NCBI RefSeq assembly: GCF_020883455.1
Contig: NZ_CP086615.1
Location: forward strand, 3,650,501 to 3,714,500
Origin: Spiribacter halobius
Lineage (GTDB): Bacteria; Pseudomonadota; Gammaproteobacteria; Nitrococcales; Nitrococcaceae
Reading direction: 5' to 3'
DNA length: 64,000 nt
A program made the translations under genes and the position numbers. Below are positions 47,231-52,364 of this stretch, in pieces (position 1 is the stretch's first letter; each line of letters opens with the position of its first letter). The notes below the pieces were generated by a model. That model had not been told where the DNA came from. It did not search any database and saw nothing but the letters and a program-made list of their open reading frames with translations.

Positions 47231-47740
47231 ATGACCTCCGGGAACCATGACGAATCCGGGCCAGGGACGGCGTCGACCGGGGACGACCCACAAGGGCTCG
47301 ATGCGCAGTGGCTCGAGTCCGCGATCCAGGGCGCGGAGCGCCAGGCAAGAGACGGTGCACCGCCATTCTTCGCGGTCGTGGTTTTGAACGGGCAAGCGGT
47401 GGGCGCGGCCGGTAACACGGTAGTACTGAATAATGATCCCACGGCCCACGCGGAGATCATGGCCATCCGGGAGGCGTGCCGCGAGATCTCTCGCACGCGG
47501 CTCACCGGAGCAACGCTCTTCGCCTCCGCTGAGCCCTGTGCGCTATGTCTCGTGGCGGCCGCGTTCGCCGGCATCGAGCGCATCGTTTATGCCCTCGATG
47601 CTGATGGCGCCGCAGACGCAGGCTTCGATTACCGTGCGGGGCAAGCACTCCTTGGCTCTGGCATCCATGAATGCTTGCGTCTGGAACACCTGCCACTGCC
47701 GGACTCCATCCGCCCGTTTACCTCGTCTCGTTCGCGCTGA
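47231..47740 (+). CDS. Nucleoside/nucleobase deaminase (guanine deaminase-like)
   Basis: The 169-residue zinc deaminase has the motifs THAEIMAIREACRE (HAE, zinc His and catalytic Glu) near residue 77 and SAEPCALCLVAAAFAGIERIVYAL (PC-x2-C) near 105-125. These define the CDA/TadA/GuaD superfamily. The length and NNDPTAHAEIMAIR pattern are closest to bacterial guanine or cytosine-type nucleobase deaminases. It stands alone between the LysR gene and the restriction system. Confidence 0.88.
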   Translation: MTSGNHDESGPGTASTGDDPQGLDAQWLESAIQGAERQARDGAPPFFAVVVLNGQAVGAAGNTVVLNNDPTAHAEIMAIREACREISRTRLTGATLFASAEPCALCLVAAAFAGIERIVYALDADGAADAGFDYRAGQALLGSGIHECLRLEHLPLPDSIRPFTSSRSR

Positions 47741-47940
47741 GACAACACCCGGGAAGAGCGCACCGGGCGGGGCGTCAGGGTCCTTCCAGAGATGCTCCGG
47801 TTCCCCTCAAGGCATTTAGGCAAGGTGTTGAATATTATTCTCGCCCCAGCGAAAACGCCTCCGATACCTCTTGGGATCGGAAGCTTCGCTTTTGCCGGGG
47901 CACATGCTTCGTACGACAAATGTATGATTCGCACCTAACC

Positions 47941-48855
47941 TTAGCGTGTCTTCTCTATAAACTCACCCATCTTGTCGAGATCGTGAGCCCAAAACAGTGT
48001 CAGGTGACTATCTTGAGCTTGTTTTAGGTTACGCACGTTAAACACACCGGACAGTACTGCCGCCGGCACTACCTGATTCTCGCCGAGTTCGCGTCGCCAT
48101 ATCCCCGCCTTCACAGAAGCGTCATTATTAACGCGCTTAACACTGTTTGTTGAACTGTTGGAGACTTTGCACTCAACCGGCATAAGACGGCCGTCATAGA
48201 GGCGGATGGGAATGTCTGCTTTTCTGGATCCCACTAGACACTCCCCGCAGAACTGTCCAGCACCCGGGGCGTCAGCCAGCGTCCGAATGGTGCGCGGCGC
48301 AATCTCCTGGAACCCGATGCCACGCAGAAACTCTTTGACACCTCCCTCCTGCTTGTTTTTTCCGTCATTACGTCGCAACGTCGAGACGCGCTGCGCGGTA
48401 ATCAATGCGGCAGATGTTAGGACTGCGGCGCGTTTTTCGGCGTCGGTCGGTTCGCGGTTTTCAGCCACCCAGGGGAATCGCTTGGAGTCAAGCGCCTGAA
48501 CAATTGTGCTGAGAATGCGCTCAGCGGCTTGGTCATCCTGCTTGAGCCTGCTTGGCGCCAATGAAGCATCCGCAAGGACCTTCAGGTCGTCTTCTGAAAT
48601 CGGTGGGCCAGCAAGGTACCGTAAGGCGTCGCCGAGATTGTCCTCGAAAATACTGACTACCTGATCCGCAGTCATGCTCTTGAGATCGTGGGCGCCATGC
48701 TTCTCGAAAAGCGTCCGAAACTGAGCATCATGCGCATCAAAGGTCTTGCGCCACACCTCAACCGGCTCATCGAGACGTTCATGGCGGAATAGCGCTATAG
48801 CTTGTTCGACCTCGGCCTTGAGGTCAGCATCGCTCCATCTGGGCGGCTTGATCAT
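47941..48855 (-). CDS. XamI-type restriction endonuclease
   Basis: The 304-residue protein has a PD-(D/E)XK core: Asp214 in GSRKADIPIRLYDG and Glu228-Cys-Lys230 in RLMPVECKVSNSSTNS. The whole sequence (IKPPRWSDADLKAEVEQAI, FEDNLGDALRYL, GAGQFCGECLVGSRKADI) looks like the XamI restriction enzyme family, whose prototype cuts GTCGAC. The family match is from memory and was not searched. It overlaps the methyltransferase gene by four bases (ATGA) and is the last gene of a three-gene operon. Placing the endonuclease last delays its expression relative to the methylase. Confidence 0.8.
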   Translation of the reverse strand: MIKPPRWSDADLKAEVEQAIALFRHERLDEPVEVWRKTFDAHDAQFRTLFEKHGAHDLKSMTADQVVSIFEDNLGDALRYLAGPPISEDDLKVLADASLAPSRLKQDDQAAERILSTIVQALDSKRFPWVAENREPTDAEKRAAVLTSAALITAQRVSTLRRNDGKNKQEGGVKEFLRGIGFQEIAPRTIRTLADAPGAGQFCGECLVGSRKADIPIRLYDGRLMPVECKVSNSSTNSVKRVNNDASVKAGIWRRELGENQVVPAAVLSGVFNVRNLKQAQDSHLTLFWAHDLDKMGEFIEKTR

Positions 48856-50393
48856 GCCGTCAGTTGCTCTATCGGTGGAATAGCAATTCGCTCGAGCTCC
48901 TTGGGCTCAAATTTGGTAAGGCCTCCGGCGTATGTGCGCCCGGAATGGATACATACGTTATCCCTAAGGAACGCAGCGATCGCGTCAAGAGCCTCGTTAG
49001 AAAGGTTTTCCCTAGGATACAGGCCATGAGCAATATTTATGTGTCTCGCCCCGCACTGATTGCGTACAAAGGCGGGTGGGCGTCTAGCCATGTAGGTGCA
49101 TAGAATTGGCGCCGGCGGCTTTAAACCGACAGACCACCAAGCGGGGCGATGTCGTGCGATGTACGACTGGTGGGCGCCCTGCTGCTTTGCCCAGCGCAGA
49201 AACCGCATCACCATCCTGCGCTCTTCAGCATCCAACTCGCTGAGGTCTTGAGGAAGGTCAATGATTCGTTTTAGACCACGCGCGTCCACTAGGTCGTTTC
49301 CGGCGCTGATCAGCTCCTTGGCCCTCGTAACCGCGGGTGTGAGAAAACGCTCGGGTACTTGGGGGGCCGCGTCACCTCCAACCCAGACACGGTTTCCGCC
49401 AGTCACCTGCCCCCGGTGCACACGGCAAATCTCGCCAAGCTGCACGAAGCCGGCGGGTGGCCTAGGGCTGGGCCGTATGATCATGGACCAACGGTCGGCA
49501 CCAATAAGCTTTTCCCAGGAGACACCCCGTCCGCCGGATAGTCCGTTGAGTTTTGCTGCTGAGCCTACATTGCGAACACGGAACTTGTCCGCTTTCTGCC
49601 CAACCTTAAAGCAGGTTATGGCGCCCGTTGTAGTCGCGTCAGCGAAGGGCAAGGCCTTCGGATCGAGCACATGCAACGCAACGCCGCCCAAGTCCCGGCT
49701 CAGGAGCTGGCGCAAAAAGTCGCCGTAATTCACATCCAGCCACTCCGACGAAGTGATGAATGCTCCAACATCGCCGTGCCGGGCCAATTGAAGCGTCCGC
49801 AGGTAGAAGTGGAGGTGCAGCCCGGCGAGCTTGCTCGCTTTTACGCCGTATACGGCCGCACTGCGGGCGAACCACTCTTTCCATTCTTCGGCAATGTTGT
49901 GGTGTCGGACATACGGTGGATTCCCAATGAACAGCGTTTGTCCGTCAATTTTTGGAAGCCTGGTCTGTCTGTAATCATCTTCAATGACAGCGATTCGGTC
50001 TTCCAGTCCGACTGCCGCGACATTTGCTCGAAGAATCTGTACAGCAAGCGGGTCCGACTCTATGGCAACTATGCTTGCTTTAGGGAAAACGTCGGCCGCC
50101 TTAAGCGCAAAGCGCCCGGAGCCCGCGCCAGGATCCACAACGCGAGCAGGAGAAGCGTTGTTTCGCGCCCACCGCAACATCGAGTCGATAATCGGCCATG
50201 GTGTGTACGTGGCCCCGGCCCCCCGTCGAAACTCAGGAGAACGAATGGCGCAAAAGGCATCCCCAAGAGGGTCTTGGCCGCCAACGATCTGTCTCTGCAG
50301 GGCGAGAAGGGATTCCGATCCATCATCCCCCTTCATCGAATGAAGTTCGGCTGCGACACGTCCGAGATGTTCTTCTGAGTGGATGCCTGTCAT
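48852..50393 (-). CDS. N6-adenine DNA methyltransferase of the XamI-type system
   Basis: The 513-residue protein has an AdoMet-binding motif I (RVVDPGAGSGRFAL, residues 84-97) and the catalytic NPPYVRHH (158-165) of gamma-type adenine methylases. The C-terminal half holds the target-recognition region (LGEICRVHRGQVTGGNRVWV). It would methylate the adenine of the recognition site, expected to be GTCGAC if the endonuclease call is right. It overlaps the small RHH gene upstream by four bases and the endonuclease downstream by four, so all three are translated from one message. Confidence 0.88.
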   Translation of the reverse strand: MTGIHSEEHLGRVAAELHSMKGDDGSESLLALQRQIVGGQDPLGDAFCAIRSPEFRRGAGATYTPWPIIDSMLRWARNNASPARVVDPGAGSGRFALKAADVFPKASIVAIESDPLAVQILRANVAAVGLEDRIAVIEDDYRQTRLPKIDGQTLFIGNPPYVRHHNIAEEWKEWFARSAAVYGVKASKLAGLHLHFYLRTLQLARHGDVGAFITSSEWLDVNYGDFLRQLLSRDLGGVALHVLDPKALPFADATTTGAITCFKVGQKADKFRVRNVGSAAKLNGLSGGRGVSWEKLIGADRWSMIIRPSPRPPAGFVQLGEICRVHRGQVTGGNRVWVGGDAAPQVPERFLTPAVTRAKELISAGNDLVDARGLKRIIDLPQDLSELDAEERRMVMRFLRWAKQQGAHQSYIARHRPAWWSVGLKPPAPILCTYMARRPPAFVRNQCGARHINIAHGLYPRENLSNEALDAIAAFLRDNVCIHSGRTYAGGLTKFEPKELERIAIPPIEQLTA

Positions 50394-50575
50394 TCAGTTA
50401 GCCTATCACGAGACTTCTGGTAATCAGACCACATCTTCTCGAAAAGTTCGTTTAACCTTAGCCCCCGCATGGCAGCCTCGGACTTAAACGCTCTGGCGAG
50501 ATCAACAGGCACGCGGATACCTATGACCTGAGACTCTTTCGAGGTTGACTCGGGTTTGGACCGCACCATTTTCAT
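50390..50575 (-). CDS. Small ribbon-helix-helix protein, candidate controller of the restriction system
   Basis: The 61-residue basic protein contains QVIGIRVPVDLARAFKSEAAMRGLRLNELFEKM, the beta-strand then two-helix pattern of CopG/Arc-type DNA-binding proteins. It is the first gene of the restriction-modification operon and overlaps the methylase start (ATGA). The -10 box of its promoter ends seven bases before the ATG, so the message is predicted to start at or next to the AUG (leaderless), as for many restriction C-protein genes. Classical C proteins are helix-turn-helix, so an RHH controller would be a variant. Confidence 0.72.
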   Translation of the reverse strand: MKMVRSKPESTSKESQVIGIRVPVDLARAFKSEAAMRGLRLNELFEKMWSDYQKSRDRLTE

Positions 50576-50581
50576 AGGTCC

Positions 50582-50610
50582 ATCCTGTCGACAAGTCGAC
50601 CGTTTGTCAA
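50582..50610 (-). promoter_or_regulatory. Restriction operon promoter containing two GTCGAC sites
   Basis: On the minus strand, TTGACA (50605-50610) and CAGGAT (50582-50587) are separated by exactly 17 bases. The spacer carries GTCGAC at 50595-50600 and again at 50587-50592, the latter overlapping the first base of the -10 box. GTCGAC is the sequence recognised by the XamI/SalI group. Methylation of these sites could therefore alter promoter strength. Confidence 0.68.
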
Positions 50611-50649
50611 CACGTGTTTGGCGCAGGCCCTACCTATCAATGCAGAAGT

Positions 50650-52122
50650 TCAAGCGCGTTTCTCCAATAGTTTGCGCAGCTCTGCCGGCCCGCGGGCAAG
50701 CCCCAACAGCATGGCAGGCGTGTTGCCACAGTTGCGGTTGGGCGCCTCGTAGCAGTACGAGCAAAGCGTGAGAGGCTCCAGGGGCTTGATGATCACCTTC
50801 GGGTTATAGGGCGCCCGCCCGGTCCAGATACGGCGATCGCCGGCCGGCGTTGGGACGACGCATTCACGCGGTGACGGCCGACCTCGGGCGCGGTGGAGAA
50901 AGCGCTCGGTCGGCAGCAGCGAGCAGTGCAGGAGTATCTGCGCCACATGCCCCAGAACCTGCATTGGAAGGGCGACCTGATGAGAGAGGTGCTTCTTGAA
51001 GGCCCCGCTAGTGCCCCACCGGTGCGGCGTCCCGCGATCGTGCCAGTGACCCTGTTGCCGGTAATGCGCCTGCAGCGCGAGCTCTAGCAGCTCGCATTGG
51101 CCGCGCGCGAAGCTCACCTCTTCCCTTTCGATTCGGACCCGCCGCCTCTCGCTCTTCGCGCGTCGGCGCAGCCTTCACTTTGACGTGGAAGAGATGGCTT
51201 CAGCTCGGGATCACGCAGTCGCTGGCGGCGGCTATGTCAACAGTCTGTAGGCCGCTCTCTTGGTCGACCAAGAAGTGCGCCTCATCGAAGTCCTTCAGCC
51301 AAAGACGGAGCAGGTTGAAGTGAGCGTAGAGGAGGCACCCATCCCACGTTTGCGAGCCGTCGTCGGGGAGATTCGTCCAAGGGTCAGACTGATCTCTCGG
51401 CGACTCGGCATGCCGGCGCTTAAGGGAGCCCCGGCGCTAGTTGCGCCGCACGTGCGCCAGAGGCTCTTTCTGGGGCTCGGAAAGCGCCTCTCGGGGAATG
51501 CCATCCTTGCGCGCCCGAAAGATGCCCACGGAGCAGTCGGCGAGGAGTCAGTAGTTCGGGAAGCGCCGCCAGATATCAGGCATCAGGGGGTCGCCCGGCA
51601 ACATGGCGATCTCATTGACCTGCGTGACGTCGGAGCGCGCGTCATATTTTAAGTGCCCCAGGAAGGAATGCCCGGAGAGCAGCTCCATAGACACGACGGC
51701 CCGCAGAAGGGTCTCACGCTCCGCGGCGATGCCCAGGCACGCCTGGTAGGCGCGGTCTATGATGTCATAGGCCCTCTGCGGCCGGATCGGGAAGATCCCG
51801 ATCAGTCGATTGATGGGCATCGAGTTCAGCAGCACCTTCACGACCTGCTCGGTCCAGGAGCGGCGCTCCGCAAGCGCGCTACAGCCGGCGTCTTGCCGCA
51901 GACCTTGCAGCGAACCGAGGACGGGGTAGATTTGGCCTTTTCGCCTATCCGCGGCTGCGGGTTAGCCTCGACGGGGCCACAGTTGGGATCCTTGCCCCGA
52001 TTAAGTACTGGAGCGCCAAAATTTTCACAGACCGGGTTCTTGCAGTGGTTTATCTTGATGCCTTCAACCGCCCCCGAGACGCGAACCTTTCGAGAGTCTG
52101 AGCCGGATTTCTGGCTGGCCAA
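50650..52122 (-). pseudogene. Decayed zinc-ribbon transposase-like gene
   Basis: Minus-strand fragments in changing frames line up in order. The N-terminal zinc ribbon is INHCKNPVCENFGAPV with VRCKVCGKTPAVARL (52122 to about 51890). Next comes YDIIDRAYQACLGIAAERET with VVSMELLSGHSFLGHLKYD (51841-51548), then a piece with LKDFDEAHFLVDQESGLQT (near 51300). A C-terminal block follows, containing LCSYCYEAPNRNCGNTPAMLLGLARGP (51117-50650). The NTPAMxLGLAKGP ending and FLVDQESGL-type acidic motif resemble a group of large insertion-element proteins I recognise but cannot name. At least two frameshifts and stops interrupt it, so it is dead. Confidence 0.55.
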
Positions 52123-52364
52123 AGAAAAAGCCTCCTAAACCCAGAGCCTGAGCATGGGAGGCTATTGAAAAGCCTGCCAAGAAATTTTCAATACCCTAGC
52201 TGAATGCTGTCGGTTCCCCTATGCCTACTCCCGGGTGTAATCGATCCGGGGAAAGGTAGTCCTGTCCAACTTGAGCACGCTGGCGCTCACCTCCCTGTTG
52301 CATGCGCTGGCCGATACACCTCGTCCGCATGGCGCCGGTCGGGAGCGACTGACCGGCATTTCCC

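What the first reader, a model, noticed from the sequence alone, without database searches (positions are those of the whole stretch)
47941..50610. Restriction-modification operon whose promoter spacer contains two copies of its likely target GTCGAC
The XamI-type endonuclease implies GTCGAC as target. Two GTCGAC sites, eight bases apart, fill the spacer between TTGACA and CAGGAT and touch the -10 box. Methylation there could repress or activate the operon, a built-in feedback like that reported for CfrBI. The first gene is RHH-type rather than the usual helix-turn-helix C protein.
Basis: partly seen in the sequence, partly recalled or inferred. Interest (0 to 1): 0.75.

Follow-up and report, generated by a model that had tools for sequence, protein, structure and literature searches.

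The report
Restriction operon regulated at its target
A bacterial DNA-cutting defence operon has, in its promoter, two exact copies of the sequence its enzymes probably recognise; relatives suggest the pair is the binding site of a small regulator made by the same operon, so the defence may sense its own DNA methylation.

Summary
The operon (minus strand) is RHH 50575..50390, N6-adenine methylase 50393..48852, XamI-family endonuclease 48855..47941. GTCGAC-TT-GTCGAC (50587-50600) lies behind TTGACA and shares one base with CAGGAT.

The interpretation needs changing: the pair tracks the RHH gene, not the methylase. Of 18 RHH loci each reachable without using the pair (the window included), 16 have two exact GTCGAC sites at 8-bp pitch directly before the RHH gene; two have degenerate versions. 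None of 25 XamI-type methylase loci without this RHH has the pair. RHH presence changes at least 7 times on a quick methylase tree. In the 4.17-Mb own genome GTCGAC occurs 1563 times; the exact pair occurs twice, at the promoters of this operon and of a paralogue (methylase 83% identical).

So the pair is most likely the operator of an RHH autorepressor that coincides with the restriction target. Methylation gating is plausible but untested, and GTCGAC specificity rests on family only. Four of four actinobacterial XamI operons with an unrelated small protein also carry GTCGAC before that gene; other XamI operons do not. The listed literature searches showed no restriction controller whose operator is the system's own target. 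Verdict: new variant of a known kind.

The parts
50605..50610 (-). -35 hexamer TTGACA
   Evidence: TTGAC close before the pair in 12 of 17 RHH promoters (my count)
50595..50600 (.). GTCGAC site 1: inferred RHH half-operator and inferred XamI target
   Evidence: 5 of its 6 positions invariant and the first G in 16 of 17 promoters
50587..50592 (.). GTCGAC site 2, 8 bp from site 1, shares one base with the -10
   Evidence: invariant in 17 of 17 promoters (degenerate in L087)
50582..50587 (-). weak -10 hexamer CAGGAT (CAAAAT in the paralogue)
   Evidence: not listed by the generic scan
50390..50575 (-). 61-aa ribbon-helix-helix protein, inferred autorepressor; ATG starts 7 nt after the -10, so its mRNA may be leaderless
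   Evidence: AF2 model pLDDT 84, RHH folds in PDB
48852..50393 (-). N6-adenine DNA methylase (NPPY motif); ATGA overlap with the RHH gene
   Evidence: PADLOC Type II methyltransferase 735.7 bits
47941..48855 (-). XamI-family restriction endonuclease; ATGA overlap with the methylase gene
   Evidence: PF09572 2e-38; PADLOC REase_II 259.8 bits

Best explanation
The operon makes an RHH repressor, a methylase and a XamI-type endonuclease from one promoter. Two RHH dimers most likely bind side by side on the tandem GTCGAC palindromes (8-bp pitch) between -35 and -10 and shut the promoter (operator identity: strongly supported by comparison; repression: inferred from position). Because that operator is also the inferred substrate of the co-expressed methylase and endonuclease, methylation probably changes RHH binding, so the operon reads its own methylation state (inferred). 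My preferred sign: N6-methyladenine in the major groove weakens the RHH ribbon's grip, so that in a naive cell RHH holds methylase and endonuclease down after an initial burst until the methylase has marked the DNA, and then releases them. My odds: operator about 0.9, methylation matters about 0.55, this sign about 0.4. The confidence below is for 'RHH operator, with methylation mattering in some way'.
For: Pair directly before the RHH gene in 16 of 18 RHH loci, each reached by a search that did not use the pair, the window counted (15 of 17 without it; 14 of 16 with the window if the close kin L033/L037 and L066/L069 count once); 0 of 25 RHH-less XamI-type methylase loci. Eleven of the 12 hexamer positions invariant over 17 promoters, the twelfth 1.68 bits, the 2-bp gap 0.62 and 1.21 bits, the 24 bases before and 32 after all under 1 bit. 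The pair stays with the RHH gene even where that gene lies convergent behind the endonuclease: Sphingomonas plasmid L053 and near-copies L091, L092. The RHH also sits in a second, deeply different XamI branch with gene order RHH-endonuclease-methylase. At least 7 changes of RHH presence on the methylase tree; on supported branches the pair followed RHH in 4.9 of 5 independent contrasts on average and never went the other way. Every family-level RHH locus that I opened lies beside XamI-type genes. In the duplicated segment (about 79% identical) the upstream spacer has diverged, but TTGACAA and GTCGACTTGTCGACA are identical. RHH fold.
Against: No binding, expression or methylome data. L072 (TTCGAC-AT-GTCGAC) and L087 (ATCGAC-CG-GGCGAC) are degenerate, so exact methylatable sites are not needed everywhere. 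If RHH binding ignores methylation, the overlap with the target is incidental. XamI operons without this RHH mostly lack promoter GTCGAC, so promoter methylation is not a general need; the P. aeruginosa plasmid operon L056 has a different small first gene with a weak RHH match (RHH_9 12.7 bits, cut-off 23.4) and no GTCGAC before it, but another inverted repeat, so a small regulator of a XamI system need not read the target. The sign test has only 5 contrasts (p 0.0625), and the tree is a quick one with long branches.
Confidence: 0.58

Rival explanations
1. Methylation-blind autorepression: RHH binds tandem GTCGAC as an ordinary autorepressor; its match to the restriction target is inherited or accidental and carries no signal.
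For: The pair tracks RHH, not the methylase. Degenerate operators exist (L072, L087). L056 shows a XamI operon with another small first gene and no GTCGAC before it. Shared ancestry of the RHH cassettes alone could keep operator and system together.
Against: Every family-level RHH locus opened lies beside XamI-type genes, in two deeply different branches and in three gene arrangements, although operons of other specificity were open to it. Actinobacterial XamI operons with an unrelated small protein also hold GTCGAC before that gene, 4 of 4.
Confidence: 0.3
2. CfrBI/LlaDII-like: methylation of the promoter sites directly alters RNA polymerase binding, and the RHH acts elsewhere.
For: Sites lie in the spacer and touch the -10. 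Precedents for promoter methylation in CfrBI, AhdI and LlaDII (review PMC12707154, passages) and at pcaIIR (PMC8989522, passages).
Against: 0 of 25 RHH-less XamI-type methylase loci have the pair; the pair lies before the RHH gene even away from the methylase promoter (L053).
Confidence: 0.1
3. Chance or plain G+C-rich sequence.
For: Single GTCGAC sites are common: 33 in the window, within shuffles.
Against: Pair exact in 16 of 18 RHH loci; gap-2 pairs in the own genome only at the two operon promoters; about 1.6e-5 for the window.
Confidence: 0.01

Closest known systems
Promoter methylation in Type II systems (CfrBI, AhdI, LlaDII)
   Same: The system's own target lies in a promoter of the system; feedback by the methylase is possible (review PMC12707154, passages seen; the primary papers were not held).
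   Different: In CfrBI the R and M genes are divergent with overlapping promoters, and no dedicated regulator is described in that passage; here one co-directional operon, two target copies, and a pair that tracks an RHH gene.
Controller (C) proteins of Type II systems
   Same: Small first gene before the enzyme genes, inferred autoregulation through an operator in its own promoter, possible leaderless mRNA (recalled for some C genes).
   Different: C proteins act through helix-turn-helix motifs (review passage); that their operators are longer and are not the restriction target is recalled. This protein is RHH.
RptR, repressor of Type I systems (PMC12255303; abstract, sections 24-26 and passages seen)
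   Same: Very small first-gene repressor; tandem 6-bp palindromes overlapping the -10; two sites needed; operator conserved with the regulator.
   Different: Four-helix protein, TAGCTA sites, Type I systems; in the parts read the operator is not said to be the methylation target.
MetJ and other RHH repressors (Arc, CopG, Omega)
   Same: RHH fold; dimers side by side on repeats; MetJ boxes are 8-bp palindromes at 8-bp pitch (recalled).
   Different: No metabolite-binding part in these 61 residues (inferred from length); MetJ is not known to me as a regulator of restriction genes (recalled).

Membership tests
XamI-type Type II restriction-modification system | RE_XamI endonuclease (PF09572) above curated cut-off | tested here: met
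   132.8 bits, cut-off 25
XamI-type Type II restriction-modification system | adjacent N6-adenine methylase | tested here: met
   PF07669 41.8 bits, cut-off 25.3; NPPY in the translation; PADLOC MTase_II 735.7 bits
XamI-type Type II restriction-modification system | recognises GTCGAC | not testable with these tools
   Family name only; XamI = GTCGAC is recalled. Two literature searches listed no methylome of such a system
Ribbon-helix-helix superfamily | strand-helix-helix fold | tested here: met
   Helices 24-37 and 41-60 in a pLDDT 84 model of one chain (no strand is assigned in the single chain); best VIA-align rows are RHH proteins, e.g. TacA1 Z 6.6, rmsd 1.4, 48 aligned; CopG Z 6.6, rmsd 1.2, 45 aligned. 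Z is under 8, so fold only
Ribbon-helix-helix superfamily | passes a curated Pfam RHH cut-off | tested here: not met
   RHH_10 14.1 bits against 27; five relatives scanned are below cut-off too (four; window)
Classical HTH C-protein systems | HTH controller as first gene | tested here: not met
   No HTH match in Pfam for the first gene; RHH model
CfrBI-type promoter methylation control | own target site inside the promoter | tested here: inconclusive
   GTCGAC is in the promoter, but that it is the target is not shown
CfrBI-type promoter methylation control | divergent R and M genes with overlapping promoters | tested here: not met
   RHH, M and R co-directional with 4-bp overlaps
CfrBI-type promoter methylation control | methylation changes transcription | not testable with these tools
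   needs a reporter assay
RptR family | RptR sequence or fold and TAGCTA sites | tested here: inconclusive
   Only our protein's RHH fold and GTCGAC sites were set against the paper's four-helix fold and TAGCTA; no sequence comparison was made
MetJ | MetJ-like structure and 8-bp tandem boxes | tested here: inconclusive
   8-bp pitch shown; MetJ structure not compared directly

The most novel reading that the evidence does not exclude
'Target-as-operator' control: dedicated small regulators of XamI-type restriction systems, from two unrelated protein families (RHH in proteobacteria and viral contigs, another small protein in actinobacterial plasmids), have taken the system's own recognition sequence as their operator, so the promoter senses directly whether the cell is protected and licenses methylase and endonuclease only when it is.
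Probability: 0.4. Interest if true: 0.82.

Novelty: new variant of a known kind. Interest (0 to 1): 0.7.

Why it matters
How a restriction system delays its endonuclease until a new host is methylated is a long-standing question. Known answers count regulator molecules (C proteins) or methylate a promoter site. A regulator whose operator is the restriction target would measure protection itself. The operon, a paralogue with the same operator in one genome, and natural relatives with and without the regulator make this directly testable with short promoter fragments.

Tried and rejected
Chance clustering of GTCGAC: rejected. Promoter GTCGAC as a general feature of these methylase operons: rejected by RHH-less loci. 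RHH with systems of another specificity (would show a target-independent operator): none seen in 385 genomes of the class of G375 (the one match is that centre itself), 398 of the own phylum (own genome, G1053 = L087, and the weak L088 at 25 bits, which lies behind a ParA-like ATPase by eye and was dropped as another family), plasmids (a Roseibium match at E 0.05 and a Streptomyces match at E 0.7 were not opened) or phage records (none). These are samples, and the profile cut-offs were strict.

Dropped rows: the third own-genome methylase match L003 (25% identity) is not XamI-type and was not counted. Of the 29 viral contigs found by the promoter pattern, 5 hold the RHH; the other 24 show neither RHH nor XamI-type genes in the DNA held and were not followed; I take them as chance matches in a very large collection, not tested. 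L027, found only through the pattern and with an in-frame stop in its RHH frame, was dropped from the counts. L025, L064, L065, L067, L068, L070, L071, L051 and L073-L077 repeat loci already counted. L017 is in the count of 25 but not in the tree (split methylase frame); L078 and L087 are not in the tree (partial methylase).

Other dead ends: a GTCGAC...TATA...GTCGAC pattern from two actinobacterial promoters had no match in viral contigs; more relatives of the actinobacterial small protein: none in viral contigs. MetJ does not appear among the fold rows shown. Literature: eight searches on restriction control and targets and one on RHH/MetJ; by titles and abstract openings none listed describes an RHH controller of a Type II system or an operator equal to the restriction target; most subscription papers are not held, so this is weak. 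Passages checked without result for the question: PMC3346939 (its RHH is a partition protein), PMC6329791 (GTCGAC there belongs to a cytosine methylase entry), PMC10853773 (RHH in DndE).
Full report
What is there. On the minus strand lie three co-directional genes with 4-bp ATGA overlaps: a 61-aa protein (50575..50390), a 513-aa N6-adenine methylase (50393..48852) and a 304-aa XamI-family endonuclease (48855..47941). Upstream, TTGACA (50610..50605) and CAGGAT (50587..50582) are 17 bp apart; the spacer holds GTCGAC at 50595-50600 and most of GTCGAC at 50587-50592, which shares one base with the -10. The start codon begins 7 nt after the -10, so the mRNA could be leaderless (inference). The generic promoter scan did not list this promoter.

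First gene. Sequence searches give only weak RHH matches (PF23807 14.1 bits against a cut-off of 27; an Arc-like PHROG at E 0.0022). An AlphaFold2 model from a 12-row alignment (pLDDT 84) aligns with TacA, CopG, NikR, Arc and AmrZ among others (Z 6.3-6.6, rmsd 1.1-1.7 over 45-49 residues in those top rows; Foldseek E values 0.11 and above). This shows the fold, not the function.

Own genome. The genome (4.17 Mb, one contig) has a paralogous operon: methylase 83% identical, RHH 75%, with TTGACA-AGTT-GTCGAC-TT-GTCGAC-AAAAT in front. Both lie in a segment duplicated at about 79% DNA identity; the spacer upstream has diverged, but TTGACAA and GTCGACTTGTCGACA are identical. GTCGAC occurs 1563 times; 26 pairs have gaps of 0-24 bases, about one per gap length; the two with gap 2 are exactly these two promoters.

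Where relatives came from. Thirteen methylase relatives in GTDB genomes; three further methylase loci from 369 genomes of the own class; one in viral contigs and one more with an actinobacterial query; ten of 118 plasmid records with a match to our methylase; five of 12 plasmid records with the other XamI branch; ten viral loci by the RHH profile; L078 and L087.

Relatives with the RHH. Sixteen have GTCGAC-NN-GTCGAC directly before the RHH gene (15 of 17 without the window). L033 and L037 are 96% identical around the pair and L066 and L069 97%; counted once each, 14 of 16. L072 has TTCGAC-AT-GTCGAC and L087 ATCGAC-CG-GGCGAC, both in the same 8-bp register. Near-copies of L053 on two other plasmids (L091, L092) have the exact pair and are not counted.

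Relatives without this RHH. Twenty-five XamI-type methylase loci (L005-L007, L009, L010, L013, L016, L017, L020-L022, L055-L062, L079-L083, L090); none has the pair. L009, L010 and L013 show no XamI endonuclease match in the DNA held. A weak RHH-profile match in L055 (22.6 bits) falls on an annotated partition gene and was not counted as the family. L056 has a 62-aa first gene with a weak match to another RHH model (12.7 bits), no GTCGAC before it and a different inverted repeat: a result against the idea that every small regulator of a XamI system reads the target. In L016's genome the RHH is absent from that operon but present at a second XamI-type operon elsewhere (L078), again with the pair.

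Conservation. Over 17 promoters (all but L087) 11 of the 12 hexamer columns are invariant and the twelfth has 1.68 bits; the two gap columns have 0.62 and 1.21 bits; every other column from 24 bases before to 32 after is under 1 bit. This footprint is two separate 6-bp palindromes at 8-bp pitch, as expected for two RHH dimers side by side (MetJ boxes are the recalled parallel). TTGAC lies close before the pair in 12 of 17 (my count).

Evolution. The RHH occurs in two deeply separated branches: methylase-endonuclease order (window) and endonuclease-methylase order, where the endonuclease fits PF09572 at E 4e-121 and the methylase is far from ours (112 bits against 1180 for ours with itself). 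In L053 and L087 the RHH gene lies behind the XamI endonuclease gene in the opposite direction, and the pair, exact or degenerate, lies before the RHH gene. On a quick tree of 40 methylases RHH presence needs at least 7 changes; on supported branches 5 independent contrasts exist and the pair follows RHH in 4.9 on average, never the other way (sign test 0.0625, about the smallest possible with 5). A Fisher test that ignores relatedness gives 4e-10 for 15 of 16 against 0 of 24 tree rows, the window among them. The careful tree did not finish, and the tool warns of long branches.

A second regulator. Four actinobacterial plasmid operons (Rhodococcus L057, M. kansasii L059, Micrococcus L060, Gordonia L061) have an unrelated protein of about 75 residues before the methylase; all four carry GTCGAC within 60 bp before that gene, singly inside a near-palindrome (L059) or twice 14 bp apart around a TATA (L060, L061). 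The product of the four chance values is about 1e-6, but it is uncorrected, the four are related, the test was made after seeing the data, and the start codon I used in L059 is not a real one (ACG; the open frame starts 3 bases earlier). Two other loci of that part of the tree, L058 and L090, lack both the small protein and a GTCGAC just before the methylase. On plasmids the small protein was found beside the XamI-type methylase in 6 of 6 records, four of them opened. Three sphingomonad or rhodobacteral plasmids have a HigA-like HTH gene first; two have no GTCGAC before it and L053 has one at -32. Of ten further first-gene promoters checked, only that of L053 has GTCGAC within 100 bp. So promoter GTCGAC goes with certain small regulators, not with every XamI operon.

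How it most likely works. Shown: exact, selected pair; tight link to the RHH gene. Inferred: RHH binds the pair and, by its position between -35 and -10, represses. Inferred with less weight: the pair is a target of the co-expressed enzymes, and methylation changes RHH binding. I favour relief of repression by methylation, which would hold methylase and endonuclease down in a naive cell after a first burst; the opposite sign (methylation strengthens repression and caps the methylase) is nearly as likely.

Known systems. Promoter methylation is described for CfrBI, AhdI and LlaDII (PMC12707154, passages) and silences pcaIIR in Pectobacterium (PMC8989522, passages). RptR (PMC12255303: abstract, sections 24-26 and passages) represses a Type I defence island through tandem TAGCTA palindromes over the -10, but is a four-helix protein. 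In the 2013 review PMC3874152 the one RHH passage is about toxin-antitoxin regulators (passages). The searches listed no Type II controller whose operator is the system's own target, judged by titles and abstract openings, in a library that lacks most subscription papers.

I added the window's own ascertainment, the near-copy pairs and L056; the confidence of the best explanation went from 0.6 to 0.58, of the methylation-blind rival from 0.28 to 0.3 and of the novel case from 0.42 to 0.4, because L056 is a counter-example.

Limits. GTCGAC specificity rests on the family name. No binding, expression or methylation data. Relatives are few per clade and some come from metagenome bins. The strain is unnamed.

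Noticed in passing
window 47928-52207 and L004 3289-7923: A segment with the restriction operon and a 599-aa gene (weak, below-cut-off InsA zinc-ribbon match) is duplicated at about 79% identity; the 599-aa frame is open beside the paralogue and broken in the window. Two RHH proteins with the same operator in one genome should cross-regulate (inference).
   Followed up: partly
L057 2576, L059 2591, L060 2553 and 2567, L061 2575 and 2589: Actinobacterial XamI operons with an unrelated small protein carry GTCGAC just before that gene, 4 of 4.
   Followed up: partly
L053, L055, L062: Sphingomonad and rhodobacteral plasmid XamI operons have a HigA-like HTH first gene; L053 has both this and a convergent RHH gene, with one GTCGAC at -32 of the HTH gene.
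   Followed up: partly
L056 2480-2860: P. aeruginosa plasmid XamI operon with a different small first gene (weak RHH_9 match) and an inverted repeat without GTCGAC before it.
   Followed up: partly
L025, L027, L033, L037: RHH-XamI cassettes in viral contigs lie right before a 470-aa protein that looks like a phage portal protein (by eye, not scanned), so the system may ride in a prophage packaging region.
   Followed up: no
L027 7800-8200: The RHH frame has an in-frame stop although the GTCGAC pair and both enzyme genes remain.
   Followed up: no
window 50573-50587: The ATG begins 7 nt after the -10; similar distances in L004, L012 and L023 (my count) suggest leaderless RHH mRNA.
   Followed up: partly
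window 47231-47740 (+): Deaminase-fold protein (PF00383 66.7 bits) convergent with the operon's end.
   Followed up: no
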